Assembly: GCA_017464815.1 (NCBI GenBank)
Contig: JAFTYI010000037.1
Coordinates: 1-64,000 of the forward strand
DNA length: 64,000 nucleotides
Reading direction: 5' to 3'
From: Bacteroidaceae bacterium
GTDB taxonomy: Bacteria > Bacteroidota > Bacteroidia > Bacteroidales > Bacteroidaceae
Shown here: positions 16,527 to 58,680 of the stretch, in pieces
Layout: each line of letters opens with the position of its first letter
How positions within the stretch are numbered: the first letter of the stretch is position 1
Notes under the pieces: generated by a model
Told to the model about the DNA's origin: nothing
The model's database searches: none
Seen by the model: the letters and a program-made list of their open reading frames with translations, nothing else
Translations under genes and position numbers: made by a program

Positions 16527-16614
16527 TCACGGATGTGATTAAGTTTGCTCACGGATGTGATTAAACCTCATCACAGATGTGGTTAAGTTTGACCACAGCT
16601 GTGATGAGGTTCAA
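16527..16614. repeat. 22-bp palindromic tandem array, 4 units
   Basis: Units start at 16527, 16549, 16571 and 16593. Cores are TCACGGATGTGA, TCACGGATGTGA, TCACAGATGTGG and CCACAGCTGTGA, each with inverted ends, and are joined by about 10-base linkers. A further palindrome, ACTTATGATAAGT (16477-16489), lies upstream. The array sits between convergent genes. Confidence 0.85.
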
Positions 16615-16681
16615 AGATTAGGGACTTTACCCCATAAAGATAGGGGATAGGGGGGATAAATCCACTACATGTGATGGGTCA

Positions 16682-18142
16682 TCAATGGGCGCGGAAGTTC
16701 CACTTCGAGTTGTCGGTGTTGAAGTCCCATTCGGCCAATGTGGGTGTGCTGTCGGCAATGGAGTAGAGCACATACTTGGTGTTGAGCCCCTCCTGTCCGG
16801 GGATGGCCTTCGGCATGATGCGGAAAGTGCCGTCGGTGGCCTGCTCGATGCGCCACAACTGCTCGTCGGCGCCACTGAATTCGGCTGCGGTGGTCAGCTC
16901 GAGGTCAGCCGTAGCGGCCAGTGCGCGGTTGGTTCCTTCGATGACAATCTTGAAGTAGGGGCCACCCAAGTAACCGCCGGCTTCGGCCACGGGAGTGATT
17001 GTCCAGCGCTGATGGGGACGGAACATGTAGTCGCCGATGCGCACGGGGATGTCGCCCTTGGGCCATGTGTCAATCACGTCGGCCAGCTTCTGTGTGGCGA
17101 TGGGCTTCACGGGGGTGTCGTTGTTGCCTCTGCCGAAGAATCCGCCTACGCGCTGAACGTTTTGGCGGGCGAAGTCAACGGCCAGTTCGAGTGCATAGCC
17201 ACGACGCTCTGACTCGATTTCAAAGGTGCCTCCCTTGAAGCGGTCGCCGGCCACGGGCCAATCGTTTTTCCACAAGAGGGGACGGATGCCGAGCACGCTG
17301 CGTCCGCTCTGTCTGTAGTCGGCCTCGTAGTGGCACGACATGATTTCGATGCCTTCGTCGATAACATAGCGTCCGAAGTGTCCGGGGCCGGTCACGCTGT
17401 CACCAGCGGCAATCACCATGCGTCCGCCACCGTGATACATGTCGCGGCCCACATTATCAATATAGGGGCCTTGGACGGTGCGTGAGCGTCCCACCACAAT
17501 ATTATAGGTAGAGTTCACTCCGTCGCAACAGGTGCCGTGGGTGCCCAGCAGGTAGTACCAACCGTTGCGGTAGATGAGGTCGGTGGCTTCGCAGTCGATG
17601 GCAATGTCAAGCTCCTTGTTGCCTTTCACGCGCTCGGCCGTGGCGGGGTCAAGCTCGATGAGCCGGATGGTGCCGAAGTAGGTGCCGTAGCACACCCACA
17701 GGCGTCCCGTCGTGGGGTCGAGCAAGAGGCCGGGGTCGATGGCGTCGTTGTCTTCAAGTCCGTCCGAGGCAGCCACCTCGATGGCTTGGGTATACTTGAA
17801 GTCGGGCGACTTGGGGTCGAGTGTCTTGTTCCACATGGTGAGGATGCGTCCGTTGTGTCCGCCTCCCAGTCCGCCACCGGTGGCTCCGTAGATAACCAGG
17901 TAGCGGTCGCCAATCTTCATGGCATCAGGGGCAGCGCCGCCACCGGGGCGTTCGGCTCCGCCTTTCCATGTCCAGCCGTCCTCGGAGATGAGGCCTCCGC
18001 CGCCGGTGCCGAAGGTGTAGTACTTGCCGTCGCACTCGACAATGGTCGAGGGGTCGTGGATGAAGGGTTGCCCCACTTGGGCAAACAGGTTGGTGGTGAG
18101 TGAAATGCCCAACAGGGCGAGGGTGGATGTTATTTTGTTCAT
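16682..18142 (-). CDS. GH43 family glycosidase (arabinanase/arabinofuranosidase-like), secreted
   Basis: 486 residues with a signal peptide ending NLFAQ. The five-bladed GH43 domain shows the base Asp in HDPSTI, the pKa modulator in NDAIDPGLL and the acid Glu in CEATDLI. Residues about 390-486 form a small beta domain resembling a ricin- or lipocalin-like C-terminal module. Family members remove arabinose or xylose from arabinoxylan or arabinan. The next GH43 gene ends only 14 bases upstream, so the two are probably cotranscribed. Confidence 0.85.
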   Translation of the reverse strand: MNKITSTLALLGISLTTNLFAQVGQPFIHDPSTIVECDGKYYTFGTGGGGLISEDGWTWKGGAERPGGGAAPDAMKIGDRYLVIYGATGGGLGGGHNGRILTMWNKTLDPKSPDFKYTQAIEVAASDGLEDNDAIDPGLLLDPTTGRLWVCYGTYFGTIRLIELDPATAERVKGNKELDIAIDCEATDLIYRNGWYYLLGTHGTCCDGVNSTYNIVVGRSRTVQGPYIDNVGRDMYHGGGRMVIAAGDSVTGPGHFGRYVIDEGIEIMSCHYEADYRQSGRSVLGIRPLLWKNDWPVAGDRFKGGTFEIESERRGYALELAVDFARQNVQRVGGFFGRGNNDTPVKPIATQKLADVIDTWPKGDIPVRIGDYMFRPHQRWTITPVAEAGGYLGGPYFKIVIEGTNRALAATADLELTTAAEFSGADEQLWRIEQATDGTFRIMPKAIPGQEGLNTKYVLYSIADSTPTLAEWDFNTDNSKWNFRAH

Positions 18143-18156
18143 AATTGTTTGTTTTT

Positions 18157-20166
18157 TTACTTAATCTCAAACTCCGTTACCGGTTTCTCATTCTCGTTGA
18201 TGAAGCGCACGCAGAAGTCGCTCATGCCCGGGCCATTGATGACGGCACCGCGCAGGATGTTGATGCCCTTCTTCAAGGTGATGCGGGGCGAAACGGCGTC
18301 GTCCTTCACCATGCGGCGGTCGCCTGAGAGGAGGAGCACCTCTTCGCCATTGAGCCACCACATGGAGGCTGAGTTGGAACCTACGGCCAAGCGCACGTCC
18401 TTTATCTCCTCGGGACAATTGATGACGGTGACATTCCAGAAGAGCACGCCGTAAATCTGTTTCTGCAAGCCGTCGGCAAAGCGGAAGAGCTTGACGTTGA
18501 ATCGCTCGCTATCCAGCTTGTGCCAGGTGAGGCGTTGCTTGCCCACCTTCACCCTTTGCCCGTCTTCGGGGACGATGGTGAACTGGTTGGGGAAGTACTC
18601 CATGTTGAAGTGTTCGCGCAGGTAGCTGTCGGTAAACACCGTGTTCGAGCGGTTGGGCTTGTCAATAGGCTCAAGGATGGTCCATCGGCGGATGAATCCC
18701 CCAGCATCGGGCTTGGCAGGAGCGGCTGTTGCAGAGGTGAAGTAGGTCGGGGGAGTCTTGAACTGCATCCAGTCGATGCTCGCGGGGTGTTCGCCTTCGC
18801 ATGCAATGTAGAGGTTGGTCACTCCCTTGGGGACATGGCTGATGGTGGTTGTGACCGCATGCCATTGTCCGACGTAGCTGCGACGGCGCATCATCATGCC
18901 ACCGTTATTGCCACCTTCGGGTTCAACCTTCAAGTTGAGGCGGGCAATCACCTTGCCGTTCTTGTTGTTTTCGCGGATGACGATGCTTGTGTTCTTGTCG
19001 GCCTTCACGTTGGCAGTCACGTATGTCCGGGCATTGGCGCCGGTGAAGTCAACATCGTTGTATGTGATGTAGCTACCCTTCTTGGGCAACTTCACTTCCC
19101 AACCGCGGAAGGTGTTGGCCGTGTCGAGGTAAGCCAGTTCCACTCCTTCCGAAGCCGAGCTGTAGCGGTCGACGTCGATGCGCGAGTTGGCTTGGTTGAT
19201 GCCTACACCACGCAGGGTGGGCTTCACCTCCTGAATGGTTCCGTCCTCGTTGAAGTACAACTTCTCAATTTGGGCAGAACGGCGCTTGTCGTCCTTTGGC
19301 GAGTAAGCATTGTGGTGATAGAACAGATACCATTGACCTTTGTAATTGACGATGCTGTGATGATTGGTCCAACATCCGTTGGCATGCTCGGCCATGATAA
19401 TTCCCTTGTATTCGTATGGGCCCATGGGATTCTTGCTCATCGCGTATGCGAGAACTTCCGTGTTTTCTCTCACATACGGGTAGGTCAGATAATAGTTGCC
19501 GTTGTACTCGAAAGCAAACGGACCCTCTGCCTGACGGTTGGGCAAGCCTTTGAGGCAGTTTACGCCCACCATCTCCATTTCGCGGTTACCCCACTTGACG
19601 ATTTCTTTGGGATTGTCGTCAGCAAGTTCCTTCATGTTCTCCTTGAGCTTGGCACAGCGCCCTGCACCCCAAAAGATGTAAGCATTGCCGTCTGAAGCCT
19701 GAAGCACACATGGGTCGATTCCATTGATGCCCTTGATTGGTTCTGGTTCGGGGATGAATGGTCCTTCTGGATTGTCTGCTATGGCTACACCTACACCAAA
19801 GCCTCCGCCTTTCGCCGGAGCGGATGGGAAATAGAAATAGTACTTCCCGTTTCTGTAAACACAGTCCGGTGCCCACATCGAATAAGAGTTAGGTCTTACC
19901 CAAGGCACTTTATTCTGGGTGACAATCACGCCATGGTCCTGCCAGTTCACCAGGTCTTCAGAGGAGAACACGTGGTAGTCTTCCATGCTGAACCAGTCCT
20001 GACGAGTGCCTTCGGGGGGAAGAATGTCGTGCGACGGGTACAAGTATACCTTATTATTAAATACGCGCGCGGTAGGGTCCGCTGTAAACTGCCCGCTGAT
20101 GATGGGGTTTTGTGCCGCTGTTGTCAGCGGTACGGAAAGCAATAGTAGTCTAAAGAATTTTTTCAT
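18157..20166 (-). CDS. GH43 family glycosidase with CBM6-like and C-terminal modules, secreted
   Basis: 669 residues from the ATG at 20166, which precedes a signal peptide (MKKFFRLLLLSVPLTTAAQ); the longer frame starts inside the promoter. The catalytic domain (about 20-330) shows TADPTARV, GIDPCVLQ and EGPFAF, which carry the three acidic catalytic residues. A CBM6-like sandwich (about 340-480) ends in SIDWMQF. The last 165 residues form a second beta module I cannot name. Probably a xylosidase or arabinofuranosidase acting on arabinoxylan fragments. A TAGATTTG box lies 25 bases upstream of the start. Confidence 0.88.
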   Translation of the reverse strand: MKKFFRLLLLSVPLTTAAQNPIISGQFTADPTARVFNNKVYLYPSHDILPPEGTRQDWFSMEDYHVFSSEDLVNWQDHGVIVTQNKVPWVRPNSYSMWAPDCVYRNGKYYFYFPSAPAKGGGFGVGVAIADNPEGPFIPEPEPIKGINGIDPCVLQASDGNAYIFWGAGRCAKLKENMKELADDNPKEIVKWGNREMEMVGVNCLKGLPNRQAEGPFAFEYNGNYYLTYPYVRENTEVLAYAMSKNPMGPYEYKGIIMAEHANGCWTNHHSIVNYKGQWYLFYHHNAYSPKDDKRRSAQIEKLYFNEDGTIQEVKPTLRGVGINQANSRIDVDRYSSASEGVELAYLDTANTFRGWEVKLPKKGSYITYNDVDFTGANARTYVTANVKADKNTSIVIRENNKNGKVIARLNLKVEPEGGNNGGMMMRRRSYVGQWHAVTTTISHVPKGVTNLYIACEGEHPASIDWMQFKTPPTYFTSATAAPAKPDAGGFIRRWTILEPIDKPNRSNTVFTDSYLREHFNMEYFPNQFTIVPEDGQRVKVGKQRLTWHKLDSERFNVKLFRFADGLQKQIYGVLFWNVTVINCPEEIKDVRLAVGSNSASMWWLNGEEVLLLSGDRRMVKDDAVSPRITLKKGINILRGAVINGPGMSDFCVRFINENEKPVTEFEIK

Positions 20167-20190
20167 AATGATAAAAAGATTAATTTTCTG

Positions 20191-20198
20191 CAAATCTA
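20191..20198 (-). promoter_or_regulatory. -7 box of the GH43 pair (TAGATTTG)
   Basis: Matches TAnnTTTG on the minus strand, 25 bases before the ATG at 20166. It shares the divergent region with the GH97 promoters. Confidence 0.5.
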
Positions 20199-20263
20199 TG
20201 AAAATATTCATTATGCAGGCATGTTAAAAGTGGAATAATTCGGCGTGTGTAACGAGGAATAAA

Positions 20264-20313
20264 CCTTCTGCAACATTTTGGCAAATGTGTATGAAATATA
20301 TGCTATACTTTTG
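20264..20313 (+). promoter_or_regulatory. upstream GH97-side promoter, CCTTYTGCAACA element plus TACTTTTG
   Basis: CCTTCTGCAACA (20264-20275) lies 42 bases before TACTTTTG (20306-20313). The same pair recurs exactly 300 bases downstream with the same spacing. Transcription from here would run into the terminator at 20471-20509. Confidence 0.55.
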
Positions 20314-20319
20314 CAGTGT

Positions 20320-20509
20320 CAATCAAGAGATGGTGCTTTTGAAGCAAGAAACTCGAGGATTGGCCAGATGGGCAGAGAGAGATTTGCCCGAATGACCGGA
20401 CGATTAGTTATGGAATTAGTTATATTAGTTGTTTTTATCTCAAAATGGTATTAGTTTAAGTAAGTTCCCCGAGTTCATGTCTTGTGAAAGACGTGAACTC
20501 ATTTTTTTT
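20320..20509 (+). ncRNA. candidate small RNA or attenuated leader, about 190 nt
   Basis: A -7 box (20306-20313) is followed by about 160 bases without an ORF and then a strong intrinsic terminator. This defines a short transcript upstream of GH97. It could be a free small RNA or the product of an attenuated duplicate promoter. No known RNA family is recognised. Confidence 0.45.
20471..20509 (+). terminator. strong intrinsic terminator
   Basis: A 13-base stem, GAGTTCATGTCTT with AAGACGTGAACTC, has a GTGA loop and is followed by A and eight T. It separates the two copies of the GH97-side promoter. Confidence 0.85.
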
Positions 20510-20563
20510 GTATAAATGTGTGGAATAGCCCGTTTTAAGGGGCATGGGAAACAGAAACAAAAA

Positions 20564-20613
20564 CCTTTTGCAACAAATTCTAAAGGTTTTGTGGAATATA
20601 TATTGTATTTTTG
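20564..20613 (+). promoter_or_regulatory. GH97 promoter, CCTTTTGCAACA element plus TATTTTTG
   Basis: CCTTTTGCAACA (20564-20575) and TATTTTTG (20606-20613) are 42 bases apart, as in the upstream copy. The GH97 start is at 20664, giving a leader of about 45 bases. Confidence 0.6.
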
Positions 20614-20663
20614 CGAATCGTATAGGAGAAATCAATATCATAATAACTATAAGCAGAGAATAT

Positions 20664-22670
20664 ATGACGAAAAAGTATGCAACATGGTGCCTTGCACTGA
20701 TGGCTTTTGCCTCGGTGAAGGCTGAAGTGATTGTCAGCAGTCCCGACGGACGCATCAGTGTGGATTTTGAAATGAAAGACGGCAAACCCACCTACTCGGT
20801 GCTCTATGACGGGCAAGTGGCCATCGAACCCTCTCCACTCGGGTTGAAGACAAACATGGGTGACTACACACAAGACCTCGTTTGGGACAAGGAGAGACTG
20901 AAGAAAGGAGAGACCTCCGGCAGCTACATCCTGCCCAGCATGAAGGAGGGACAGGAACATGAGTACAGATACAATGTGGCAGAGCTGCAATTCACAAGAA
21001 CTCCGCGCCCGGCCGCTCAGGGCGACAACCGCCCTCAAAGAAGAAGAGGAAATAACGGCCCGGTTATGGGGGTTGAGTTTTGTGTGAACAACCGCGACGT
21101 GGCTTTCCGCTACACGGTGTTGACTCAAGGTGACACCCGCAGCTGTGTCATCACTGAAGAGGCTTCCACTTTCCAAGTGCCAGCCAATGCACTCACCTTT
21201 ATGGCTCCGCAGAGCAATCCCATGACAGGCTTTGCCCGCACCATGCCTAGCTATGAAACCAAATATACCCTTGGCGAACCAGTGGGCAAAAATGGATGGG
21301 GCAATGGCTACACCTTCCCCTGTTTGTTCGAGGTGCCCAACGCCGACAAGGCAAAGGCATTGTGGATATTGGTGTCAGAAACAGGGACGGATGGAGACTA
21401 CGTCGGTTGCCGTCTGTTGGGTGGCAATGGTGGCGAATACCGCATCGGCTTCCCCATGGAGGGCGAGTTGAACGGATGGGGTTGCACATCGGTGCAGATG
21501 GCTCTGCCCGGCAAGACTCCGTGGCGCACCATCACTTTGGGACATACACCGGCCAATGTCATTGAAACAACTGTAACTTGGGACCTTGTTGAAGAAAAAT
21601 ATCCGGCAAGCAAACCTTACCATTTGGATTATGGCAAGGGCATGTGGTCGTGGATTATCGGCATGGACTCCAGCTGCAACTACGACGAGCAGAAACGCTA
21701 TATCGACTTTGCCGCCGCCATGGGCTACCGCTCGTTGTTGGTTGATGCCTTGTGGGACGTGCAGATTGGCCGCGAACGCATTGCCGAACTTTCCCGCTAC
21801 GCCCGGTCAAAGGGTGTGGGCCTCTACCTGTGGTACAACAGCAACGGCAGCTGGAACGATGCGCCCCAGTCGCCCAAAGGCATTATGAACAATCCGTATG
21901 AACGCCGCAAGGAGATGAAGTGGATGCAGGAGAATGGCATCCTTGGCATCAAGGTCGACTTCTTCGGTGGCGACAAGCAACCGATGATGCAGCTCTATGA
22001 AGACATCCTCACCGATGCCAATGACTACGGCATCATGTGTATCTTCCACGGTTGCACCCTGCCACGCGGATGGGAGCGGATGTACCCCAACTACGTAGCC
22101 TCTGAGGCCATCCTTGCTTCCGAAAATCTCCATTTCTCACAAGGCTTCTGCGATGCCGAGGCACGCGACTGTGGCACCATGTATCCCTTCACCCGCAATG
22201 CCGTGGGTTCAATGGACTTTGGTGGTTCAGCCCTCAACAAGTATTATAGCGCCTCCAACAACCGTGGCTCGCGCCGCATCACCAGCGATGTCTATGCCTT
22301 GGCTACCGCCGTCATCTTCCAAAGCCCCGTGCAACACTTTGCCTTGGCACCCAACAACCTGACCGATGCACCGGCCTACGCCATCGACTTCATGAAGACA
22401 GTGCCCACCCAATGGGATGAAGTGCGCTTCATCGACGGCTATCCCGGCAAGTACATCATCATGGCACGCCGCTCGGGCGACAAGTGGTACATTGCCGGCG
22501 TGAATGCCATGGACACTCCGCTGAAGCAGACACTGACCCTGCCCATGCTCGAAGGCAAAAGCACCGTCAGCCTCTATCAGAACGGTGAAGTGAAACCCGT
22601 CAAAGTGAGCAGGAAACAGACCATCAAGGTGGAACTTCCTACGAATGGTGGAGTGGTGATTGTAGAATGA
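20664..22670 (+). CDS. GH97 family alpha-glycosidase, secreted
   Basis: 668 residues from the ATG at 20664, which gives the signal peptide MTKKYATWCLALMAFASVKA; the longer frame runs back through the promoter. The N-terminal beta-supersandwich (about 20-270), the (beta/alpha)8 barrel (about 290-560) and a C-terminal beta domain match GH97. The barrel has GIKVDFFGGDKQ, whose Asp is at the position expected for the nucleophile in retaining GH97 alpha-galactosidases, rather than the Glu arrangement of inverting SusB. That subdivision is an inference from memory of the family. In a xylan locus an alpha-galactosidase could remove terminal galactose from complex side chains. Confidence 0.85.
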   Translation: MTKKYATWCLALMAFASVKAEVIVSSPDGRISVDFEMKDGKPTYSVLYDGQVAIEPSPLGLKTNMGDYTQDLVWDKERLKKGETSGSYILPSMKEGQEHEYRYNVAELQFTRTPRPAAQGDNRPQRRRGNNGPVMGVEFCVNNRDVAFRYTVLTQGDTRSCVITEEASTFQVPANALTFMAPQSNPMTGFARTMPSYETKYTLGEPVGKNGWGNGYTFPCLFEVPNADKAKALWILVSETGTDGDYVGCRLLGGNGGEYRIGFPMEGELNGWGCTSVQMALPGKTPWRTITLGHTPANVIETTVTWDLVEEKYPASKPYHLDYGKGMWSWIIGMDSSCNYDEQKRYIDFAAAMGYRSLLVDALWDVQIGRERIAELSRYARSKGVGLYLWYNSNGSWNDAPQSPKGIMNNPYERRKEMKWMQENGILGIKVDFFGGDKQPMMQLYEDILTDANDYGIMCIFHGCTLPRGWERMYPNYVASEAILASENLHFSQGFCDAEARDCGTMYPFTRNAVGSMDFGGSALNKYYSASNNRGSRRITSDVYALATAVIFQSPVQHFALAPNNLTDAPAYAIDFMKTVPTQWDEVRFIDGYPGKYIIMARRSGDKWYIAGVNAMDTPLKQTLTLPMLEGKSTVSLYQNGEVKPVKVSRKQTIKVELPTNGGVVIVE

Positions 22671-22702
22671 TTCAACTTCCGCAAGTATTATATTAGCATG
22701 AT

Positions 22703-22830: not shown

Positions 22831-22877
22831 TGTCAGAATACTGAAACTTAAGTAGAATAAATCAGTTAAAAAGGACT

Positions 22878-25358: not shown

Positions 25359-25377
25359 TCGGTGATATAAATAGTTT

Positions 25378-25452
25378 TAGGCACGGATTACACGGATAAA
25401 TTATACATAAGTAAAGTATAAAAACCGTGTTAATCCGTGTAATCCGTGCCTA
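25378..25452. repeat. dispersed TAGGCACGGATT inverted repeat
   Basis: Arms at 25378-25399 and 25431-25452 pair with one mismatch, between the convergent GH115 and GH30 genes. A bidirectional terminator role is plausible. Confidence 0.8.
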
Positions 25453-25466
25453 ATTCTATATTCATT

Positions 25467-28329: not shown

Positions 28330-28625
28330 AATCCCATTTTATTTGCCTGCAAAGATATAAAAATGCACAATACAACGTGCGTTTTTTAACAAAAATTGCA
28401 TGGTGGAGTGTGCATTTATCCTCTATCGCTACGGATTCAAGGTGCAAAACTTAATCCCTAAACCCTACAATTCAAGGATGAGAATCTCATGTTTGCAAAC
28501 TGAAAACTTTGCAAACGAAAGGCTGGGGAAACTCACTCTCCCCTTAATACTTCTCATATTGTAAACATTTTGCCAACTATAATGTAAGGAAACCGAAAAA
28601 ATGCGCTTCTCCATTGGCTTCATCC

Positions 28626-28691
28626 CAAGGCTAAGCCCACCTTAACCCAAGGCTGAGGTTGCCTTATCCTTGGACTGAGCATCAGCCATTT
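28626..28691. repeat. 22-bp tandem array, 3 units (inside element A)
   Basis: Units begin at 28626, 28648 and 28670 (CAAGGCTAAGCC, CAAGGCTGAGGT, TTGGACTGAGCA). The first two have AAGGC and GCCTT-like inverted ends. The corresponding array in copy B begins at 63243. Confidence 0.65.
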
Positions 28692-28771
28692 ATGGGCCGA
28701 TTAAAATTCTGCCCATTTTTCGTGCGGAAGAAAACTTGCGCCCATATACGCGATTCTCACGCGGTCAGTTT

Positions 28772-28804
28772 TGCATAAATATACGCCCGCTGTATATTTA
28801 TGCA
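28772..28804. repeat. perfect 13-bp hairpin in element A
   Basis: TGCATAAATATAC and GTATATTTATGCA enclose a 7-base loop. Copy B (63389-63421) keeps both arms exactly and differs by one base in the loop. Confidence 0.9.
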
Positions 28805-28857
28805 TTTCCCGGTCGGAAAAATCAAGCAAAAACCGCCTTCTTCCCACCCTTTAGCGG

Positions 28858-28949
28858 CTAACCTCTCGAGAGGTCAGCCGCTGACCACTTGAGAGGACAC
28901 GGGCTAACCTCCGGACACCTTAGCCGCTGACCACTTGAGAGGAGACGGG
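28858..28949. repeat. 23-bp tandem array, 4 units plus partial (inside element A)
   Basis: Units begin at 28858, 28881, 28904 and 28927 with CTAACC or CTGACC; a partial unit starts at 28950. The first core, ACCTCTCGAGAGGT, is a perfect 14-base palindrome. The corresponding array in copy B begins at 63475. Confidence 0.8.
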
Positions 28950-29228
28950 CTGACCACTTTGTGCCTTACCTCATCCGCTCACCTTCATATTGTATATATA
29001 TGCAAAAATGCACCCCTCACGGGGTAGTTCCCTCTGACGAAATAGGAACGAAATAGAAGTGCGTGATTTATTACTGGGGGGTGTAAGGAAAAAATGCAAG
29101 CAAAACATTCTAAGCTGTCCCACTGTTTTAGGGGGACGAGCCTTCAGGCGGAGGGGGTAAAACATGTTCTTCAACACATTTCTGTAAAATTCTTCATTCT
29201 TCACTCCTCACTCTTCATTTATATTTTG

Positions 29229-36354: not shown

Positions 36355-38037
36355 ATGGCATTTCAAGCAGATCAACAACAGATTAGTTTTTTGTTAGGCA
36401 AGAAAATTTATTCAATACCTAGAAACCAACGTAAGTACGTTTGGAAAGCAGATAATTGGAAAAATTTATTGGAAGATTTAGACTTTCTAAGAGGAACTGG
36501 AAAGGCTCATTTCTTAGGAAGTATAGTGTTAAATACTCTACCAAATCCTAATAACGATGATATAGAGTATTATGAAATCGTTGATGGTCAGCAACGTATT
36601 ACAACTATAGTTATGATTCTTGTTGTAATTGCACAAATATTCAAAGAACGAGATGAAGATGCCCTATTTCAAGGTTTATTGTCTTACGTCCAGACTACGA
36701 ATATCAACAATAATACTTCTTGTACTTTGAATACAGACGTACACACTTGCATTATGAATATTGTTTCTCATGTTGCAAATAGAGAGAGCCCATACAACAC
36801 GATGCAATTGTTAATAACAAACTGTATTACGAATAAGAAACAAGATGATGTAATCGAGGAATGTTTGAAGTATTTTTATGAAAATCTATCAAATCGAGAT
36901 ACTGAAGATGTCGCTTCTTTCCGCAATTCGCTTATAAGTGCTAATTATGTCAATATTAGAACTACTGATGAAGATGCATATACAGTATTTGAAATTCTCA
37001 ATGCAAGAGGTATAGATCTTGAAAATCATGAGTTGCTTAAAAATTACATATTGCGTTACACGGTTCCGGTTAACAATGTGGACATTGCACGACAAGCATG
37101 GAAAGAAGAACTCGAAAACAGATTAGGTAAAAACCTTTCGAGTTTTCTGAAACATTATGTTGCACATAAATATGGAATCTCTGGTGTTACAAAGAACAGA
37201 GCCGTATATGATACGATTAAGAGAAACACAAATATTGCAGAAGTAAACATGTTGTTTGATGATTTAAAACTCAAAGCTAAGTATTATCAACAAATTATAT
37301 GCGAGTCAAATGGACAAGGGGAACAAATTTCTGAAATTGACAGAATTTTTAAATTTATGCAGTCTAATAGAAGTTTATTGTTTAGACCTATTTACCTTAG
37401 TCTGTTACATCAAAATGAATTGGGTAAAATTTCGGAGGAAAATCTTGTTAAAGTCTTAAAATGTATACAATACTTTTTCGTTTGTTACAATCTTATTAGT
37501 AAAGAAACATCAAATAAAATTTCAGAAGGTGTACAGAAGTATGCTTATCAAATTGAAAATGAGTATAGTCAAGACGTATTAAAGAACTTCTTACAACATT
37601 TAAGAAATCGCATGCCTACAAAAAAGGAGTTTATAAACACCTTTAAGTTGATAGGATATTCCAATCATTGTGAGTATTTTCATGATAGTAAAAATAAGCA
37701 AAGGGCAGAGTTGGCCTTAATTATACATGAGCAGATTAAATCAGGACGTGTAGAAATCCCATCATTTACGATTGAACACATACTTCCAGATTCTCAAAAT
37801 CGAGAGAATGCGGGTATTGGGAATCTTATGCCATTAGAAGAGCATCTAAACGGATTGTGTAATGATAAACCATTAAACGAAAAAATACAAATCTATGATA
37901 GATCTAGTTTCACTACAGTCCGAAATGTCGCCGATAGGTATAGAGATAATGTTGACAACTTCAAAGTGGAAACAAGAAGTAAGATAATGGCAGAAGAATT
38001 ATATAATGAAGTTGATCGTATAGTAAATGCTATATGA
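36355..38037 (+). CDS. DUF262/DUF1524 protein, GmrSD-like restriction nuclease
   Basis: 560 residues. The N-terminal DUF262 has IPRNQRKYVW (21-30) and DGQQR (77-81). The long helical middle is followed by a DUF1524 HNH-type motif (IEHILPD from about 473, then GNLMPL and H). GmrSD enzymes are type IV, modification-dependent systems that cut glucosylated hydroxymethylcytosine DNA; the substrate of this homologue is not known. Base composition is clearly more A+T-rich than the xylan genes, suggesting transfer. It lies 35 bases after the Schlafen-type gene. Confidence 0.88.
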   Translation: MAFQADQQQISFLLGKKIYSIPRNQRKYVWKADNWKNLLEDLDFLRGTGKAHFLGSIVLNTLPNPNNDDIEYYEIVDGQQRITTIVMILVVIAQIFKERDEDALFQGLLSYVQTTNINNNTSCTLNTDVHTCIMNIVSHVANRESPYNTMQLLITNCITNKKQDDVIEECLKYFYENLSNRDTEDVASFRNSLISANYVNIRTTDEDAYTVFEILNARGIDLENHELLKNYILRYTVPVNNVDIARQAWKEELENRLGKNLSSFLKHYVAHKYGISGVTKNRAVYDTIKRNTNIAEVNMLFDDLKLKAKYYQQIICESNGQGEQISEIDRIFKFMQSNRSLLFRPIYLSLLHQNELGKISEENLVKVLKCIQYFFVCYNLISKETSNKISEGVQKYAYQIENEYSQDVLKNFLQHLRNRMPTKKEFINTFKLIGYSNHCEYFHDSKNKQRAELALIIHEQIKSGRVEIPSFTIEHILPDSQNRENAGIGNLMPLEEHLNGLCNDKPLNEKIQIYDRSSFTTVRNVADRYRDNVDNFKVETRSKIMAEELYNEVDRIVNAI

Positions 38038-38570: not shown

Positions 38571-38636
38571 AAGTATCCTAAGATAAAGTGCCAAACATCT
38601 TAAGATGAATGGGCAAGTATCTTAGGATACTTTTTC
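38571..38636. repeat. 22-bp palindromic tandem array, 3 units
   Basis: Units begin at 38571, 38593 and 38615. Cores are TATCCTAAGATA, CATCTTAAGATG (perfect) and TATCTTAGGATA; linkers are about 10 bases. Units 1 and 3 are also inverted copies of each other over 16 bases (38570-38585 and 38618-38633). Confidence 0.9.
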
Positions 38637-49351: not shown

Positions 49352-49359
49352 CAAAGATA
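49352..49359 (-). promoter_or_regulatory. -7 box of the xyloside operon (TATCTTTG)
   Basis: Matches TAnnTTTG on the minus strand; no -33 TTTG at the expected distance, consistent with activated expression. Confidence 0.55.
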
Positions 49360-49605: not shown

Positions 49606-49743
49606 CGGGACACACGTGTGTCATGCCTGGAGACACAGGTGTGTCATGCGAGGAGACACAGGTGTGTCTTGCGTGGAGACACAGGTGGGTCTTGGGCGGA
49701 GACACAGGTGGGTCTTTGGCAGAGACACAGGTGGGTCTTTTGA
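49606..49743. repeat. 23-bp palindromic tandem array, 6 units plus a degenerate one
   Basis: Units begin at 49606, 49629, 49652, 49675, 49698 and 49721; a decayed copy precedes at about 49585. The first core, GACACACGTGTGTC, is a perfect 14-base palindrome. The next are GACACAGGTGTGTC (two units) and then GACACAGGTGGGTC (three units), so palindromy decays along the array. Confidence 0.92.
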
Positions 49744-52493: not shown

Positions 52494-52548
52494 TGTGTGG
52501 GTCTGTGGGTTTGGTTATTGATTGATAGGCAGGCATCTTTCCTCCGGT

Positions 52549-52617
52549 ATCGGGCTTCCCGTCCGCCATTGTGCGGGAGCGTTCACTCTCTGGCATCGGG
52601 ATTCCCGTCCGCCTGCC
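52549..52617. repeat. 23-bp spaced repeat, 3 units
   Basis: ATCGGGCTTCCCGTCCGCC at 52549 recurs with one change at 52595, 46 bases (2 x 23) later; a diverged middle unit starts at 52572. Cores have CGGG/CCCG dyads. It lies between the RND and dehydratase genes. Confidence 0.6.
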
Positions 52618-52631
52618 TGTGTGTGATGGGG

Positions 52632-52991: not shown

Positions 52992-53425
52992 AGTTGGTGC
53001 TTCTTTTTCCATTCGGTGAGGAACTCGGGGCACGAGGCCTCCAGCTCTCCCTGCAGGTTAGTGAACAATTGGGTGGTTTCGGCCGTCAGTACCAGCGAGT
53101 TGTCCGACTCCTTGCGTATCTCGTAGTCGAACACCAGCTTGGCACCGCGCACGGGGCGGCAGATGATGGTGACCAGCAACACGTCGTCCACCGTGGCCGT
53201 CTGGTGGTAGCGCATCTTCACGTCGAAGACGGGAGCCATGTAGTTGTTTCTGTAGATGGTCATGTACTCCAAGCCGTACTCCCGCCCGAAGGCTTCGCGG
53301 GCGTCCTCCATATACTTGATGTAGTGGCCGTGCCACACCATGTTGATTGAGTCGACTTCGGAGAAGCGGACTTGCACCCTCACGGTGGTGCTCAGGGGGC
53401 TGTGGGTTGCTTCTTTCTTCTTCAT
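52985..53425 (-). CDS. YbgC/4-hydroxybenzoyl-CoA thioesterase-like hotdog protein
   Basis: 146 residues. VRFSEVDSINMVWHGHYIKYMEDAREAF contains the Asp and following helix of the YbgC-type thioesterase signature. It probably releases acyl or aroyl chains from ACP or CoA. The ATG lies within the first unit of the 23-bp array that fills the space to the upstream gene. Confidence 0.82.
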   Translation of the reverse strand: MKKKEATHSPLSTTVRVQVRFSEVDSINMVWHGHYIKYMEDAREAFGREYGLEYMTIYRNNYMAPVFDVKMRYHQTATVDDVLLVTIICRPVRGAKLVFDYEIRKESDNSLVLTAETTQLFTNLQGELEASCPEFLTEWKKKHQLC

Positions 53426-53580
53426 TCCTTGATGGGTGTCTTCTTCATTCCTTGACGGAGAGTTCCTTCATTCCTTGACGGATGTTTCCTTCATTCCTTG
53501 ACAGAGAGTTCCTTCATCCTTTGACGGATTTCTCCTTCATCCCTTGACGGATGTCTCCTTTATTCCTTGATGAATATCTT
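53420..53580. repeat. 23-bp tandem array, 7 units, carrying copies of a ribosome-binding/start region
   Basis: Units begin at 53420, 53443, 53466, 53489, 53512, 53535 and 53558. On the minus strand most carry an AAGGAATGAAG-like segment, that is, a Shine-Dalgarno-like word next to ATG. The last unit contains the true start of the thioesterase and the first contains the stop of the upstream dehydratase. Some units have a CATCC/GGATG dyad. Confidence 0.92.
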
Positions 53581-53988: not shown

Positions 53989-54031
53989 TCTTCTTTTTGG
54001 GTTGGCATGGTTGACAGGGCTGACAAGTCGA

Positions 54032-54083
54032 CGAGTTGACGAGGACAGGGGGCTGTGTGTGCCCTTGCCGGCTCGTCAACTCG
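54032..54083. repeat. 12-bp perfect hairpin between ACP and dehydratase genes
   Basis: CGAGTTGACGAG (54032-54043) pairs with CTCGTCAACTCG (54072-54083); weaker pairing extends outward. No T run follows, so it may be a processing or attenuation structure rather than a terminator. Confidence 0.65.
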
Positions 54084-54108
54084 TGTGTCAGGTCAACTCT
54101 GCGGATGA

Positions 54109-54351
54109 TTACTTCTGGTTCTTGCTTACGAAGTCGTAGAGGGCAGCAAATGTCTGGATGTTGATCAGTTCGCTGCTCTGAATCTTCACACCGAACTCCG
54201 ATTCAATCAGAGCCACCATGTCCACCAGGCTAAGGCTGTCCAACTGGAGGGTCTCCTTGATGTTCGCCTCGGGGGTGATGTCCTCTACCTCGATTTCAAA
54301 CTCTTCGGCCAGTACTTCGTTAATCTTCTCAATCAATTCGTTCATTTCCAT
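54109..54351 (-). CDS. acyl carrier protein
   Basis: 80 residues starting MEMNELIEKI, in a frame shorter than the overlapping shadow that reads back into the ketosynthase gene. The phosphopantetheine site is Ser39 in QLDSLSLVD. Acidic and helical throughout. It carries the growing chain for the ketosynthase just upstream and the two dehydratases downstream. Confidence 0.9.
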   Translation of the reverse strand: MEMNELIEKINEVLAEEFEIEVEDITPEANIKETLQLDSLSLVDMVALIESEFGVKIQSSELINIQTFAALYDFVSKNQK

Positions 54352-54392
54352 GTGTTTTGTTAGTTTATTGTTATTGATATAGTCATTTGTTC

Positions 54393-55613
54393 TTACAGGT
54401 TTCTCACAATCAGCGTTGAGTTCGTTCCTCCGAAGCCGAAGGAGTTGGAGAGGAAGGTGTCGAAGTGCTTCTCCACACGCTGGTTGGGGATGAGCAGCTT
54501 GGCCGAGTCCTCGTCGGGGTTCTCGAAGTTGATGTTGGGTGCGATGAAGCCGTTCTTCATCATCAGCATCGAGTAGATGACCTCGCTGGCACCTGCCATC
54601 CACATTTCGTGTCCTGTCTGGCTTTTGGTGCTGGTCACCTCGATGCGGCGGTCGCCGATGACGTTGTAGATGGCTTTGGCTTCGTTGGTGTCGCCCACGT
54701 GGGTCGAGGTGGCGTGAGCGTTGATGTAGCCGATTTCGTTCACGTCGATGCCTGCACGGCGGATGGCCATGAGGAGCGACTTGGTGGGGCCTTCCACGTT
54801 GGGCGACGAGATGTGGTCGCCGTTGGAAGAGAATCCGTAGCCAAGAATCTCGGCCAAGATGGGCGCACCGCGGCGAACGGCTGACTCATAGCTCTCGATG
54901 ATGACCGTGGCTGCTCCTCCACCGGGCACGAGGCCATCGCGGTCGCGGTCGAAGGGGCGGCTGGCTTTGGTCGGTTCGTTCTCGCGTACCGAGAAGGCCG
55001 AGATGCCGTCGAACGAGCCTATCGACCAGGGGTTCACCTCCTGTGCACCTCCGCAAACGACCATCTCCTGAAGACCGTTTTGGATGAGCAGTGCACCGAG
55101 GCCGATGGCGTGTGAGCCGCTGGCGCAAGCTCCGCTGACGGTGAGGTTGATGCCCTTCAGCTTGAAGATGCATCCGAGGTTCATGGTCACCGTTGAGTTC
55201 ATCGACTGGAAGATGGCTCCCGAGCCGACGAGGGTAGTGTCCTTCTTCTCGCGCATGGTGTCCACGGCCTTCACGTTGGGCACGGTGGAGCTGTCGTTTC
55301 CGTAGAGCAGGCCTACGTCGTGGGTGTTCAGATAATCCTGGTCGATGCCTGCATTGCGCAAGGCGTCGGCGGTGGCACAATAGGCATACTGTGCCTGTTG
55401 GGGCATGTACACGCGCTGGGCACGACTGAGCACTTTCTTCAAGTCGGGATCTTCGAGGTGGGCGGTCAGTGCCGAACGGAATCCCATCTCCTTACGGACG
55501 GGGTCGAAGATGATGCCCGACTTGCCGTGATAGAGCGAGTCGCGCACTTCATCCAGGGTCTTTCCAAGGCATGAGTAGATGCCCATGCCGGTGATTACAA
55601 CTCTGTTTTGCAT
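54393..55613 (-). CDS. beta-ketoacyl-ACP synthase (FabF/ApeO-like)
   Basis: 406 residues. The active-site Cys163 (SGACASGSHAIGLG), His300 (NAHATST), Lys330 and His335 (KSQTGHE) complete the condensing triad, and the NSFGFGGTN end is present. It extends acyl chains on the ACP. The KS-ACP-dehydratase-thioesterase-dehydratase-RND order points to a type II system for a polyene- or lipid-like product. Confidence 0.92.
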   Translation of the reverse strand: MQNRVVITGMGIYSCLGKTLDEVRDSLYHGKSGIIFDPVRKEMGFRSALTAHLEDPDLKKVLSRAQRVYMPQQAQYAYCATADALRNAGIDQDYLNTHDVGLLYGNDSSTVPNVKAVDTMREKKDTTLVGSGAIFQSMNSTVTMNLGCIFKLKGINLTVSGACASGSHAIGLGALLIQNGLQEMVVCGGAQEVNPWSIGSFDGISAFSVRENEPTKASRPFDRDRDGLVPGGGAATVIIESYESAVRRGAPILAEILGYGFSSNGDHISSPNVEGPTKSLLMAIRRAGIDVNEIGYINAHATSTHVGDTNEAKAIYNVIGDRRIEVTSTKSQTGHEMWMAGASEVIYSMLMMKNGFIAPNINFENPDEDSAKLLIPNQRVEKHFDTFLSNSFGFGGTNSTLIVRNL

Positions 55614-55661
55614 ATCTTTTATTATTCTTTTATGTATTATTCTTTTATGGTTTTCAACGGA

Positions 55662-57023
55662 TTATTTCTTCAACATGGCGTTCAGCTTGTCACTGATGCG
55701 TTGCTTCAGCGAGCGCATCTTTCCGACAACGCTTGAGGGGGCCATCTGATAGCGGATGTCGCGGATGGTGCCTTTCACCCACATGGCGTATTTCCATGCA
55801 AAGAGCATCAGGGCGGGGAAGAGGGCCACGTACACGAGACCCGACCACCAGCTGACGTTCACCCACATGACGATGAACGTGATGAGGGCTGACAGGGGGA
55901 GCAGCAACAGGGCATTGAAGACGAAGAGCATGGTGCCCTCGAACATGGGGTCCTTGAACTTCTTTTTGAAGAAGGCCATGGGGATGGCGTAGGCCGGAAG
56001 CGAGGGCCACAGGGAGACAATCCACAGGGGGAGCAGTGCCAACAGGCCCATCAGCTTCAGTGAGCTGACGATGGGGGTTGAGGTGTGGTCGAGTTGCTTC
56101 AGTGTGAAGCCTGCCTTGTCCTGCAGGTGCTTCAGTTCGCGGGCGTCGGCATAGAGGGCGTCCACTTCGGCAGGAGCCTCTGCTTGGGTGGCTTGTATGG
56201 CTTCCACAATCTCCTTGTCGGCCATCAGCCGGTCGGGCAGAGCCTCGGGGTTCAATCCCTTCTGGGCGGCCAGCCCGGCTCCCCAGTTGAGGCGGATGAA
56301 GTCTACGGCGTCGTAGTTGTCCACGTCGCGGATGTCCAGCATCAGCTCCTCAATCTGCTTGCGCACCAGGGCGTTCACCTGGCGTTGTGCCGTGCGGGGC
56401 TTCGTCTTGTAGAGTTCATAGTAGGGCTTCAGCGAAATCTTTTCGCCATACTTCACCATGTATTGGTTCTGGATGCCGAAGTAGTCGGAGTAGTGGTTGC
56501 ACGAGGGCAGGATGAAGATTTCCTTCTCGAAGTTTCCCGCCTCGGCGGCTTGGAAAGCCATCTTGGTGTAGCCGAAGGAGAATGTGCCCAGCCAGTGCTT
56601 GTCCTGATGGCCGGCTTCGGGAAACATCAGGATGGTGTTTCCGCCCAGCAGGGTGCGTTCGGTCATCTTGAAGGTCTCCTCGTTCTTGGCCAGTGCGGCC
56701 TCGCCCTCGTAGTTGATGCGGAAGGCGGGGAGCAGGCCGATGCCGCGCAGGAACTTGCCTGCCAGCGGATGGTAAGCAAAGACGTCGGCACGGGTGATGA
56801 CGTTCAGTTTGCGGTCGTTGAAACTCACCACCACTCCCAACGGGTCGTTCAGGCAATTCTGGTGGTTGCTCACGATGAGCAGCGGAGTGCCGCTTTCGGG
56901 GATGGCCTCCTCGTTTACCCTATATACGTTCTTGTAGTACACCTTGTCGTGCAGGAAGCGAAGGTAACTTCTGAAGAACCGGTAAGCCATGTTGGGCTTT
57001 TCTGTCTCTATTTTCTTCTCCAT
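55662..57023 (-). CDS. PlsC-type acyltransferase with C-terminal membrane segments
   Basis: 453 residues. The acyltransferase block has SNHQNCLNDP (His54, Asp60, an H-x5-D spacing instead of the usual H-x4-D) and FPEAGHQDKH. Two or three hydrophobic segments lie at about 325-420. It probably transfers the finished acyl chain to a lipid head group. It is the first gene of the seven-gene operon; a TACTTTTG box is 45 bases upstream. Confidence 0.85.
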   Translation of the reverse strand: MEKKIETEKPNMAYRFFRSYLRFLHDKVYYKNVYRVNEEAIPESGTPLLIVSNHQNCLNDPLGVVVSFNDRKLNVITRADVFAYHPLAGKFLRGIGLLPAFRINYEGEAALAKNEETFKMTERTLLGGNTILMFPEAGHQDKHWLGTFSFGYTKMAFQAAEAGNFEKEIFILPSCNHYSDYFGIQNQYMVKYGEKISLKPYYELYKTKPRTAQRQVNALVRKQIEELMLDIRDVDNYDAVDFIRLNWGAGLAAQKGLNPEALPDRLMADKEIVEAIQATQAEAPAEVDALYADARELKHLQDKAGFTLKQLDHTSTPIVSSLKLMGLLALLPLWIVSLWPSLPAYAIPMAFFKKKFKDPMFEGTMLFVFNALLLLPLSALITFIVMWVNVSWWSGLVYVALFPALMLFAWKYAMWVKGTIRDIRYQMAPSSVVGKMRSLKQRISDKLNAMLKK

Positions 57024-57374
57024 CTTTATCTTTAGGTAAATAATTGCATATTATCTCAAAAGAAGCCGCAAAAGTACGAAAAAATGGTGACTTATCCCAC
57101 TTATTTTGCGCAAATCGCTCTTTTTTGTGTAAAATGGCAGAGTAAATCCGACCTTTTGGACAGTCGTTTCCTTTTTTGAACGTTTTCTTGTGGGCCTCCT
57201 TGAAAGGCGGCGGATTTTTTCTCCCCCACGGGAAAAAACTTTTTTTCAGGCGGGAGAGAAAAAAAGTGTGGGCAAATGGATTCCCATTCAGGAAAATATT
57301 CGTAGTTTTGCGGGCAAATTACCGCACTATTGAAGACACAGAGGATGCATTTGTAACGTAAATTTAGGAAAACC
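57024..57374. other. divergent promoter region between acyltransferase and ilvA
   Basis: TACTTTTG on the minus strand (57076-57069) serves the acyltransferase operon and TAGTTTTG on the plus strand (57303-57310) serves ilvA. An imperfect inverted pair of TTTTTTCTCCC-like runs lies at about 57213-57270. No gene is seen. Confidence 0.55.
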
Positions 57375-58568
57375 ATGTTAGAGCTCAGTGAAATCTACAA
57401 GGCAGCGCATGTCCTGCGCGACGCCATCCGCCACCCTCATCTGATTGTGGCTCCCCTGATTAATCCCGAGAGTGAAATCTATCTGAAGCCCGAGAACTTG
57501 CAGTACACCGGCTCGTTCAAGTTGCGCGGGGCTTACTATAAAATCTCCCAATTGTCGGCCGAGGAGAAGGCCCACGGCGTGATAGCCTGTTCGGCCGGCA
57601 ACCATGCGCAGGGCGTGGCGCTGGCGGCCACCAAGAGCGGCATTCCCTCGCTCATCTGCCTGCCCGCCGGTGCGCCCATCTCGAAGGTGGAGGCCACCAA
57701 GCGCTATGGTGCCGAGGTGTGCTTGGTGCCCGGTGTCTACGACGATGCCTACCAGCGTGCCCTCCAGCTTCGCGACGAGAAGGGCTACACCTTTGTCCAC
57801 CCTTTTGACGACCTGCACGTGATTGCCGGACAGGGCACCATCGGCCTCGAGATGCTCGACGAGCTGGGCGACGTGGACGTGGTCATCGTGCCCGTGGGAG
57901 GCGGAGGCCTCATTTCGGGTGTGGCGTGTGCCATCAAGCAGCTGAAGCCCTCGGTGCAGGTCTATGGCGTGCAAGCCGAGGGGGCGCCCAGCATGGCCAC
58001 CTCGCTGAAGAGCCGGCAGATTGAGCGGCTCGACTCCGTCTCCACCATCGCCGACGGCATTGCCGTGAAGGAGCCGGGCGTGAACACCTTCGACTTCTGC
58101 CAGCGCTACGTGGATGGCATCGTCACCGTGACGGACGACGAGATTGCCGCCGCCATCCTGGCCCTCATCGAGCAACAGAAGCTGGTGGCCGAGGGGGCAG
58201 GGGCCGTGGCCGTGGCTGCCGCCATGTTCAACAAGGTGCCGGTGAAGGGCAAGAAGGTCATCTGCCTGGTGTCGGGCGGAAACATCGACGTGACCATCCT
58301 CAGCCGCGTCATCACCCGAGGACTCAGCAAGTCGGGACGCATGGAGACGCTCACCGTCGACCTCTACGACCAGCCCGGCCAGCTCTCGGCCGTCTGTGGC
58401 GTCATCGCCCAGTTGGGTGGAAACATCATCAGTGTCAGCCACGAGCGCACCAACGCGAGCGCTCAGGTGAACGGTTGCACCCTCCGCGTGGTGCTCGAGA
58501 CACGCAATGCCGAGCACATCCGCCTCATCCATCAAGGACTGCTCGATGCGGGCTTTGTGATATTATAG
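57375..58568 (+). CDS. ilvA: threonine ammonia-lyase (threonine dehydratase)
   Basis: 397 residues. The PLP lysine is Lys49 in [11 protein letters not shown] and the phosphate loop is [10 protein letters not shown]-terminal ACT-like domain (about 325-397, [12 protein letters not shown]) suggests allosteric control. It deaminates threonine to 2-oxobutanoate for isoleucine synthesis. A monocistronic unit with its own -7 box and a terminator downstream. Confidence 0.93.
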
Positions 58569-58636
58569 CGATAATTGTCTGCTTGTCAATTGATTATGTA
58601 CTCTTCTAAGAATATTGGGACAACCCCCTAAAAAAC

Positions 58637-58680
58637 TCACGTGTGAGATTCCTCAAAGTTACGTGTGAGATTCCTCAATC
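58637..58680. repeat. 22-bp tandem array, 2 units
   Basis: Units start at 58637 and 58659: TCACGTGTGAGATTCCTC and TTACGTGTGAGATTCCTC. The core has TCAC/GTGA ends. It is the shortest of the arrays of this class. Confidence 0.8.

What the first reader, a model, noticed from the sequence alone, without database searches (positions are those of the whole stretch)
16527..58680. A class of intergenic tandem arrays with a 22-23 bp period and unrelated sequences
Eight arrays share one architecture but not sequence: 16527-16614 (22 bp x4), 28626-28691 (22 x3), 28858-28949 (23 x4+), 38571-38636 (22 x3), 49606-49743 (23 x6), 52549-52617 (23 x3), 53420-53580 (23 x7) and 58637-58680 (22 x2). Most units have a 10-14 base dyad-symmetric core and a linker of about 10 bases. 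A 22-23 base step is about two helical turns, so cores would face the same side of the helix. They lie outside genes, often between convergent genes. Because sequences differ between arrays while period and symmetry are constant, I infer a shared generating mechanism or a protein that reads spacing and symmetry rather than sequence. This is not IS, CRISPR or REP as I know them.
Basis: partly seen in the sequence, partly recalled or inferred. Interest (0 to 1): 0.85.

Follow-up and report, generated by a model that had tools for sequence, protein, structure and literature searches.

The report
Phased palindrome lattices between genes
This gut bacterium and several relatives carry many short runs of palindromes spaced about two DNA turns apart between genes, some of them inside non-coding elements of nearly fixed length, which looks like DNA on which a protein lines up; such tandem repeats were already described in outline, but their inner order and fixed length look new and can be tested.

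Summary
The arrays are real and genome-wide. In 423 kb of the window's genome, intergenic tandem arrays of period 20-24 number 38, against 0.3 in dinucleotide shuffles. Convergent placement is not enriched. The sequences are not all unrelated: 28626 and 28858 belong to one 528-bp element repeated at 63177, and the 38571 and 49606 cores recur elsewhere.

Constant-size, variable-sequence bacterial satellites (PMC8161180) and a 23-nt minisatellite element (PMC4596501) are in print.

Seemingly new: (1) phased palindromes with free linkers: in a same-genus genome, G009, neighbouring units agree at 96-100% of arm positions and about 50% of linker positions, yet 53 of 54 A-A steps are exactly 22 bp. 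(2) Host elements differing at 17-39% of sites with few indels. (3) One scaffold with alternative lattices. (4) One family confined to the origin-side quarter of a chromosome; not repeated in a second genome.

Best reading: phased sites for a cooperative dimeric DNA-binding protein, which was not identified.

The parts
16527..16614 (.). 22-bp lattice (4 units, also a 44-bp period), core TCACRGATGTGA, between convergent genes 13032-16184 (+) and 16682-18142 (-)
28560..29087 (+). copy 1 of a 528-bp non-coding composite element carrying two lattices; right end set by a loose motif (7 of 17 mismatches)
28626..28691 (.). lattice 1 of the composite element, 22-bp step, AAGGCTAAGCC-type core
   Evidence: not listed by TRF
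28772..28804 (.). 33-bp palindrome TGCATAAATATAC...GTATATTTATGCA inside the composite element
   Evidence: (I6)
28856..28970 (.). lattice 2 of the composite element, 23/46-bp step, core GCTAACCTCTCGAGAGGTCAGC
38571..38636 (.). 22/44-bp lattice, core AAGTATCTTAAGATA; similar lattices in L008, L013 and L022 of the same genome
49606..49743 (.). 23-bp lattice, 6 units, core GACACAGGTGTGTC; second locus at G000:C24 (L005 1435-1570)
52549..52617 (.). 46-bp direct repeat of about 1.5 copies; not a 23 x 3 array
53416..53580 (.). 23/46-bp lattice, 7 units, core CATYCCTTGACGGATG
58634..58677 (.). 2-unit 22-bp lattice, core AACTCACGTGTGAGTT; the matching place holds 10 and 7 counted units in two related genomes
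63177..63704 (+). copy 2 of the 528-bp composite element, including lattice 63485-63559

Best explanation
The arrays are lattices of binding sites for sequence-specific, dimeric DNA-binding proteins that assemble cooperatively along one face of the helix. Each palindromic core (about 12-16 bp) would seat one dimer. A step of 21-23 bp is about two turns of DNA in the cell, so neighbouring dimers could touch whatever the linker sequence. At least some lattices sit in dispersed non-coding elements whose length is nearly fixed, so the whole element may act as one phased nucleoprotein scaffold. The core changes between species as protein and sites co-evolve, while the step stays. Shown: enrichment of palindromes, a fixed step with free linkers in G009, recurrence at unlinked loci, few indels, alternative lattices in one scaffold, one origin-side family. 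Inferred: that a protein binds, that it is a dimer, that neighbours cooperate, and any chromosome-scale role.
For: In G009, positions 3-6 bp from the dyad are 96-100% identical between neighbouring units, the centre 73-77%, positions 9-11 (linker) 47-51% (21 of 26 arrays with a clear dyad). Of 54 A-A steps within clusters 53 are exactly 22 bp (one is 42), and 26 of 26 B-B steps (600 kb). Different cores share one lattice (3 A, 5 B, 3 A in L056). Of 14 pure A clusters 10 have four units and 4 have five; 6 of 6 pure B clusters have three. Arms of A cores pair beyond shuffles (640 of 784 cells v 586.7, p 0.0002; solitary look-alikes p 0.98). Composite elements in G000: 3 indel events for 681 substitutions over 6 pairs, 4 for 471 over 3 pairs; G009 group: 11 for 2793 over 15 pairs, that is 0.4-0.8 per 100, against 2.6 in 14 orthologous non-coding pairs and 6.2 in 14 pairs of other repeats. 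No frame is open in 12 copies tested. L010, L018 and L019 have the same scaffold with a 22-bp TCCTAAA lattice instead of the 23-bp one. A matching locus keeps the lattice in three genomes.
Against: No binding protein was found; of 20 neighbour proteins 17 fall in ordinary families and 3 in none. The dyad is not significant for 24 of 37 G000 arrays nor for any of 5 in G019, although G019's recurrent family looks symmetric. In G000 linkers are almost as alike as arms (0.72-0.88 v 0.70-0.95), and arrays of other periods that pass the same dyad cut also show raised arms (0.87-0.98 at 3-6 bp), so part of the profile comes from that selection. The A motif fixed ten of fourteen positions, so only the inner pairs bear on pairing there, and copies share descent. 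At the 58634 locus arms do not covary (p 0.93). Arrays fold well as RNA. With cheap BLAST gap costs the indel contrast shrinks to 6.1 v 9.3 and 9.8 per 100. G009 group segments were cut to equal length by me; right ends of the composite element were found by a loose motif (0-7 of 17 mismatches); L010 and L018 match over 788 bp, beyond those ends.
Confidence: 0.5

Rival explanations
1. They are remains of miniature transposable elements (BrickBuilt-like MITEs) spread by a transposase encoded elsewhere; the tandem palindromes are transposase sites or passive minisatellite cargo.
For: Dispersed intergenic copies with conserved leader and tail in G000 (7 copies) and shared flanks around A lattices in G009; BrickBuilt has leader, 23-nt repeats and tail in 19 intergenic copies (PMC4596501). 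The A pattern is found in 1 of 15 genomes of the genus, as expected of a recent invader.
Against: Element ends in G000, lined up by eye, show a loose direct and no clear inverted repeat, and no evident target duplication. Passive cargo would be expected to gather indels; few are seen. No transposase was searched for.
Confidence: 0.25
2. They act as RNA: transcribed arrays of hairpins that end, protect or regulate transcripts, or small RNAs.
For: Ten arrays folded have z -2.0 to -7.5; in eight of the ten no shuffle of 200 folds as well. A 52-nt class is transcribed in Bacillus coagulans (PMC8161180).
Against: A fixed step with free linkers, and unconserved stretches of fixed length, are not needed for hairpins. 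No preference among gene orientations. No Rfam match in the window; in seven G009 stretches only tRNAs and group II intron pieces.
Confidence: 0.15
3. Plain satellites made by replication slippage, with no function; the period reflects a mechanical bias.
For: A run of 17 near-identical units at G009:C1:1443816-1444180, a 6.8-copy, 99%-matched array in G006 and different unit numbers at a matching locus show that units expand and shrink. In G000 linkers are nearly as alike as cores.
Against: Slippage copies linkers as well as cores; in G009 linkers are near 50% alike and arms near 100%. Families recur at unlinked loci with set unit numbers.
Confidence: 0.07
4. Convergent-gene insulators or terminators.
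Against: 7 of 36 and 6 of 26 arrays lie there, against 25% and 16% of intergenic length.
Confidence: 0.03

Closest known systems
Constant-size, variable-sequence bacterial satellites (Subirana and Messeguer; PMC8161180 read in part; the earlier J Bacteriol paper is not held)
   Same: Tandem repeats, largely non-coding, with fixed unit size (20-23 nt in many groups), sequence specific to species, several families per genome; they note short sequences shared by units, often with their reverse in the same 52-nt unit, that 20-21 nt is two helical turns, and suggest a protein that polymerises on the repeats
   Different: In the sections read I saw no lattice of palindromes with free linkers, no host element of fixed length, no exchange of lattices and no restriction to a chromosome region; many arrays here have fewer units than their search minimum of four
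BrickBuilt MITE of Porphyromonas gingivalis (PMC4596501; abstract and passages seen)
   Same: Same bacterial order (recalled); intergenic 23-nt tandem units inside a dispersed element with leader and tail; unit number differs between strains; conserved and non-conserved sites within the unit
   Different: Its ends are inverted repeats; here they look like loose direct repeats. Here one genome has many different lattices, and the elements examined keep nearly one length
REP/BIME repeats with RAYT (PMC3733652; passages seen)
   Same: Palindromic repeats, many per genome, sometimes in tandem
   Different: REPs are described as 20-40 bp palindromes tagged by GTAG or CGTC, in dimers 20-100 bp apart; the lattices here have a fixed short step and differing cores. 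No RAYT search was made
matS/MatP, SlmA and Noc sites (recalled, not tested)
   Same: Palindromic sites for dimers, some restricted to part of the chromosome
   Different: Those are scattered sites rather than phased arrays; no such protein was sought here
Plasmid iterons (recalled)
   Same: Direct repeats of about 20-22 bp in helical phase, bound by one protein
   Different: Iterons sit at a replication origin with their rep gene; these are at dozens of chromosomal loci beside ordinary genes

Membership tests
Constant-size variable-sequence satellites | Non-coding tandem repeats with a dominant 20-23 nt unit | tested here: met
   38 of 62 intergenic arrays (periods 8-60) in the G000 sample have period 20-24
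Constant-size variable-sequence satellites | Several families of the same unit size and different sequence in one genome | tested here: met
Constant-size variable-sequence satellites | At least four units per array (a threshold of their search, not a definition) | tested here: inconclusive
   some arrays pass (49609 5.7, 53416 6.7 copies), many have 2-4
BrickBuilt-type MITE | Dispersed intergenic element with leader, 23-nt tandem units and tail | tested here: met
   7 copies in the 423 kb of G000, four with a 23-bp and three with a 22-bp second lattice
BrickBuilt-type MITE | Terminal inverted repeats and target-site duplication | tested here: inconclusive
   ends lined up and judged by eye: loose direct repeats, no clear inverted repeat or duplication
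BrickBuilt-type MITE | Sequence homology to BrickBuilt itself | not tested
   the BrickBuilt sequence was not fetched
REP/BIME | GTAG or CGTC tag and associated RAYT transposase | not tested
   neither tag nor RAYT was searched for
CRISPR | 24-48 bp repeats parted by regularly sized unique spacers | tested here: not met
   the whole step is 21-24 bp with linkers of about 8-10 bp
parS/ParB centromere | parS consensus TGTTNCACGTGNAACA as the site | tested here: not met
   genome-wide at most 1 mismatch: one site in G009, at 463,671, against dozens of lattice loci with other cores
Chromosome-domain sites (MatP/SlmA/Noc type) | Sites restricted to one chromosome region | tested here: inconclusive
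   met for family C in G009; mixed for A v B; not seen for the family tested in G019

The most novel reading that the evidence does not exclude
Members of the Bacteroidaceae mark regions of their chromosome with species-specific lattices of phased palindromes, each family read by its own cooperative DNA-binding protein: in G009 one family around the origin, one thicker on the terminus side and one thicker on the arms. The lattices would be a fast-evolving positional code for nucleoid folding or segregation, in a group where I know of no such system.
Probability: 0.2. Interest if true: 0.88.

Novelty: new variant of a known kind. Interest (0 to 1): 0.62.

Why it matters
Why some bacterial satellites keep one unit size while their sequence changes is stated as unexplained in PMC8161180. 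Free linkers with a fixed step, and non-coding elements that tolerate 17-39% substitution with few indels, turn that question into one about helical phase, which a pulldown and a half-turn insertion can answer. If a protein is found, it would be a new architectural or regulatory DNA-binding system in abundant gut bacteria.

Tried and rejected
Convergent-gene role: not enriched. CRISPR: step too short. Coding repeats: no open frame in 12 element copies (six of G000, L013 not among them, and six of G009), and no marked codon pattern in substitutions. Rfam: nothing in the window; seven G009 stretches gave five tRNAs and three group II intron pieces. Binding protein through neighbours: 20 proteins beside lattices, 17 in ordinary Pfam families and 3 in none. 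ParB: each of five genomes has one strong HTH_ParB protein; in G009 it lies at 2.93 Mb near dnaA (2.95 Mb), with one weak further match; no tie to lattices was seen. Neighbour-label test of A, B and C along the chromosome: negative (46 same-label neighbours v 40.6, sd 4.7; A and B alone 47 v 44.0). So the A v B difference rests on the Kuiper test (p 0.0028 for all 45 and 44 loci; 0.0002 for a stricter A subset of 36 chosen after seeing the map) and on single-set harmonics (A second p 0.005, first p 0.46; B first p 0.016, second p 0.66). Region restriction was not repeated in G019: its family's 10 distinct loci are spread. Covariation at the 58634 locus: negative. An indel count with cheap BLAST gap costs discriminated little (6.1 per 100 substitutions in composite elements v 9.3 orthologous and 9.8 over paralogous pairs, which include those elements); MAFFT counts were then made and both are told. 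Array 49606 and the 23-bp array at the matching place in L081 could not be shown to be homologous.
Full report
WHAT WAS CHECKED. The window is bases 1-64000 of contig C14 of an unnamed 2.63-Mb genome in 58 contigs, 79% complete. A search with one of its proteins gave 12 named loci, metagenome-assembled Bacteroidaceae, Bacteroides, Prevotella or Bacteroidales; 8 of the 12 titles name sheep, goat or roe-deer gut. A ninth array at 63485-63559 was missed.

MORE THAN CHANCE, AND GENOME-WIDE. In 422,879 bases of this genome (20 stretches plus the window), intergenic tandem arrays found by TRF have period 20-24 in 38 cases, against a mean of 0.3 in ten dinucleotide shuffles; it is 16 v 0.7 for periods 8-19 and 8 v 0.1 for 25-60. 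In 1.0 Mb (50 stretches) of the same-genus genome G009 the 20-24 class has 37 against 0.1. The density of the 20-24 and 42-47 classes per Mb in the sampled genomes was G000 92, G006 83, G008 67, G016, G017 and G024 50, G009 45, G019 25, G001 17, G022 5, G011 and G015 0 (samples of 20-600 kb, so the small ones are rough).

SYMMETRY. With the columns of each array permuted as control, 39 of 81 arrays of period 20-24 have a dyad at p<=0.05, against 5 of 43 at other periods. In G000 it is 13 of 37 against 4 of 26, in G009 22 of 26 against 1 of 9, in G019 0 of 5.

THE CLEAREST CASE: G009. This genome (one contig of 3.706 Mb and two small ones) has three recurrent lattice families: A (AAACA-N4-TGTTT, four or five units), B (AAGTAT-N-ATACTT, usually three) and C (GGACGCGTCC with longer flanking symmetry, about three). 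In 600 kb, 53 of 54 A-A steps and 26 of 26 B-B steps are 22 bp. Neighbouring units agree at 96-100% of positions 3-6 bp from the dyad, 73-77% at the centre and 47-51% at 9-11 bp (21 of 26 arrays that pass a dyad cut). Two cautions: arrays of other periods passing the same cut also show raised arms (0.87-0.98) with lower values far out (0.58-0.90 beyond 9 bp, few data at the end), and in G000 the contrast is small. A and B units stand in one run at three loci (L056, L057, L097), in register to within a base or so. The A pattern was found in 1 of 15 genomes of the genus, with none in the reversed control. In A cores paired arm positions agree beyond shuffling (640 of 784 v 586.7, p 0.0002) and in solitary look-alikes they do not (p 0.98); the motif itself fixed ten of the fourteen positions and the copies are related, so this is support rather than proof.

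HOST ELEMENTS OF NEARLY FIXED LENGTH. Window 28560-29087 and 63177-63704, with copies in L013 and L025, form one element, 528, 528, 529 and 528 bp long. L010, L018 and L019 share its leader and tail, are 580 bp each and carry a 22-bp TCCTAAA-type lattice where the others have the 23-bp one. Right ends were set by a motif matched with 0-7 mismatches in 17, and L010 and L018 are alike over 788 bp, beyond these ends. The four differ by 17-24% with 3 indel events for 681 substitutions summed over six pairs; the three by 19-32% with 4 for 471 over three pairs. Six G009 elements, cut by me to 565 bp each, differ by 29-39% with 11 indel events for 2793 substitutions over 15 pairs (pairs share copies, so events are counted more than once). 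With the same aligner, 14 orthologous non-coding pairs gave 26 for 995 (11 of the 14 are from one piece starting at 54040, which may be partly coding) and 14 pairs of other G000 repeats gave 38 for 615 (two of them pair another lattice element, L011 with L023, one with 0 and one with 3 indels). With cheap BLAST gap costs the contrast shrinks to 6.1 against 9.3 and 9.8 per 100. All six frames hold at least two stops in each of the 12 copies tested. In the G009 group a stretch of 66 bp has almost no letters shared by five of six copies, yet conserved blocks on both sides stay aligned without gaps in most pairs.

A MATCHING LOCUS. Between a PALP-family gene and the next gene, where the window has two units of AACTCACGTGTGAGTT, L081 has ten counted units and L083 seven, at a 22-bp step with one of 23 in each; some units have up to 4 mismatches. 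Of the 12 loci only these two reach that gene; its protein is 96% identical. The core and the step persist while unit number and linkers change. Arms did not covary there (p 0.93). Elsewhere the window's 49606 array and a 23-bp array in L081 occupy matching positions with different sequence, but the flanks align too poorly to press this.

PLACE ON THE CHROMOSOME. In G009, if 16S genes follow replication (recalled), the six found (+ at 0.946 and 1.678 Mb; - at 2.607, 3.312, 3.569 and 3.618 Mb) put the origin between 3.62 and 0.95 Mb through zero. GC skew, sampled in 20-kb pieces, is negative up to 0.53 Mb, wavers between 0.54 and about 1.0 Mb, is positive to 2.30 Mb and negative from 2.40 Mb with two small exceptions. 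The single parS-like site, one mismatch, is at 0.464 Mb, but the reversed control also has one hit. dnaA lies elsewhere, at 2.947 Mb. Family C: all 14 genome-wide matches lie at 0.305-0.803 Mb. Two of them overlap and five at 0.772-0.803 Mb fall into two sets of identical sequence; counted as one each they leave 9 loci, and the chance of so small an arc is about 6e-7 if they are independent. With a looser rule, 10 C loci were found in 9 of 22 sampled stretches within 0-0.87 Mb and none in the other 28; that boundary was drawn after seeing the hits, and 5 of the 10 lie inside ORFs of 120 codons or more by my crude caller, which was not resolved. A against B: Kuiper p 0.0028, but the neighbour-label test is not significant. 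The A list holds matches of up to 2 mismatches and the B list exact matches only, because listings were cut after that. In G019, another genus of the family, a family ACAAA-N2-AANTT-N2-TTTGT has the same 22-bp step at 10 distinct loci (19 matches, 1 in the reversed control) but is spread around the chromosome, and was absent from G000, G009 and G022.

HOW IT MOST LIKELY WORKS. Conserved half-sites, a freer centre, free linkers and a fixed step are what phased dimer sites look like; nearly fixed element length points to phase over longer distances too. I therefore hold a cooperative protein lattice as most likely (0.5). A BrickBuilt-like mobile element, whose lattice may well be bound by its own protein, comes next (0.25). 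RNA hairpins cannot be excluded: ten arrays fold with z -2.0 to -7.5. The step of about two turns in negatively supercoiled DNA is recalled knowledge.

WHAT IS KNOWN. PMC8161180 (abstract, introduction, most of the methods, first part of the results, discussion) reports tandem repeats of 20-21 and 52 nt in Bacillus with constant size and variable sequence, says that 20-23 nt repeats occur in many bacterial groups, notes short shared sequences, often with their reverse, within 52-nt units, and proposes a protein that polymerises on the repeats, or small RNAs. PMC4596501 (abstract, outline and passages) describes BrickBuilt. PMC8625621, PMC6749651, PMC5771137 and PMC3733652 were seen as passages. 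The 22/44-nt wording of the 2020 paper is recalled; that paper is not held. I did not see palindrome lattices of this kind, elements of fixed length or origin restriction in what I read; the searches were made, in open-licence papers only.

Noticed in passing
window 16204-16347, 25371-25459, 61260-61332, 9344-9379: Dispersed inverted repeats of the type AGGCACGGATTACACGGAT; arms of 27 nt, 100% complementary, at 61262 and 61305.
   Followed up: no
window 53-105, 9525-9552 and 9654-9708: Copies of a 9-bp-periodic ACGCAGATG repeat, in opposite orientation (53 nt, 92% complementary), about 9.5 kb apart.
   Followed up: no
window 28772-28804 and 63389-63421: A 33-bp palindrome with TGCATAAATATAC half-sites, resembling arginine-repressor boxes by recall, present in the four aligned copies of the composite element.
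   Followed up: partly
G009:C1:1443816-1444180: A run of 17 nearly identical 22-bp B units, a sign of recent expansion.
   Followed up: no
L095 about 3910-4015 and 14 further places in 600 kb of G009: A module of about 105 bp with an inverted repeat (GCCCGAGAAGG...CCTTCTCGGGC), beside A lattices and sometimes apart from them.
   Followed up: partly
window 36355-38037: A GmrSD-type restriction enzyme gene next to array 38571.
   Followed up: no
window 3590-3811 and 4331-4552: A 222-bp direct repeat, 81% alike, within called ORFs.
   Followed up: no
L097:4858-6697: Group II intron pieces in G009.
   Followed up: no
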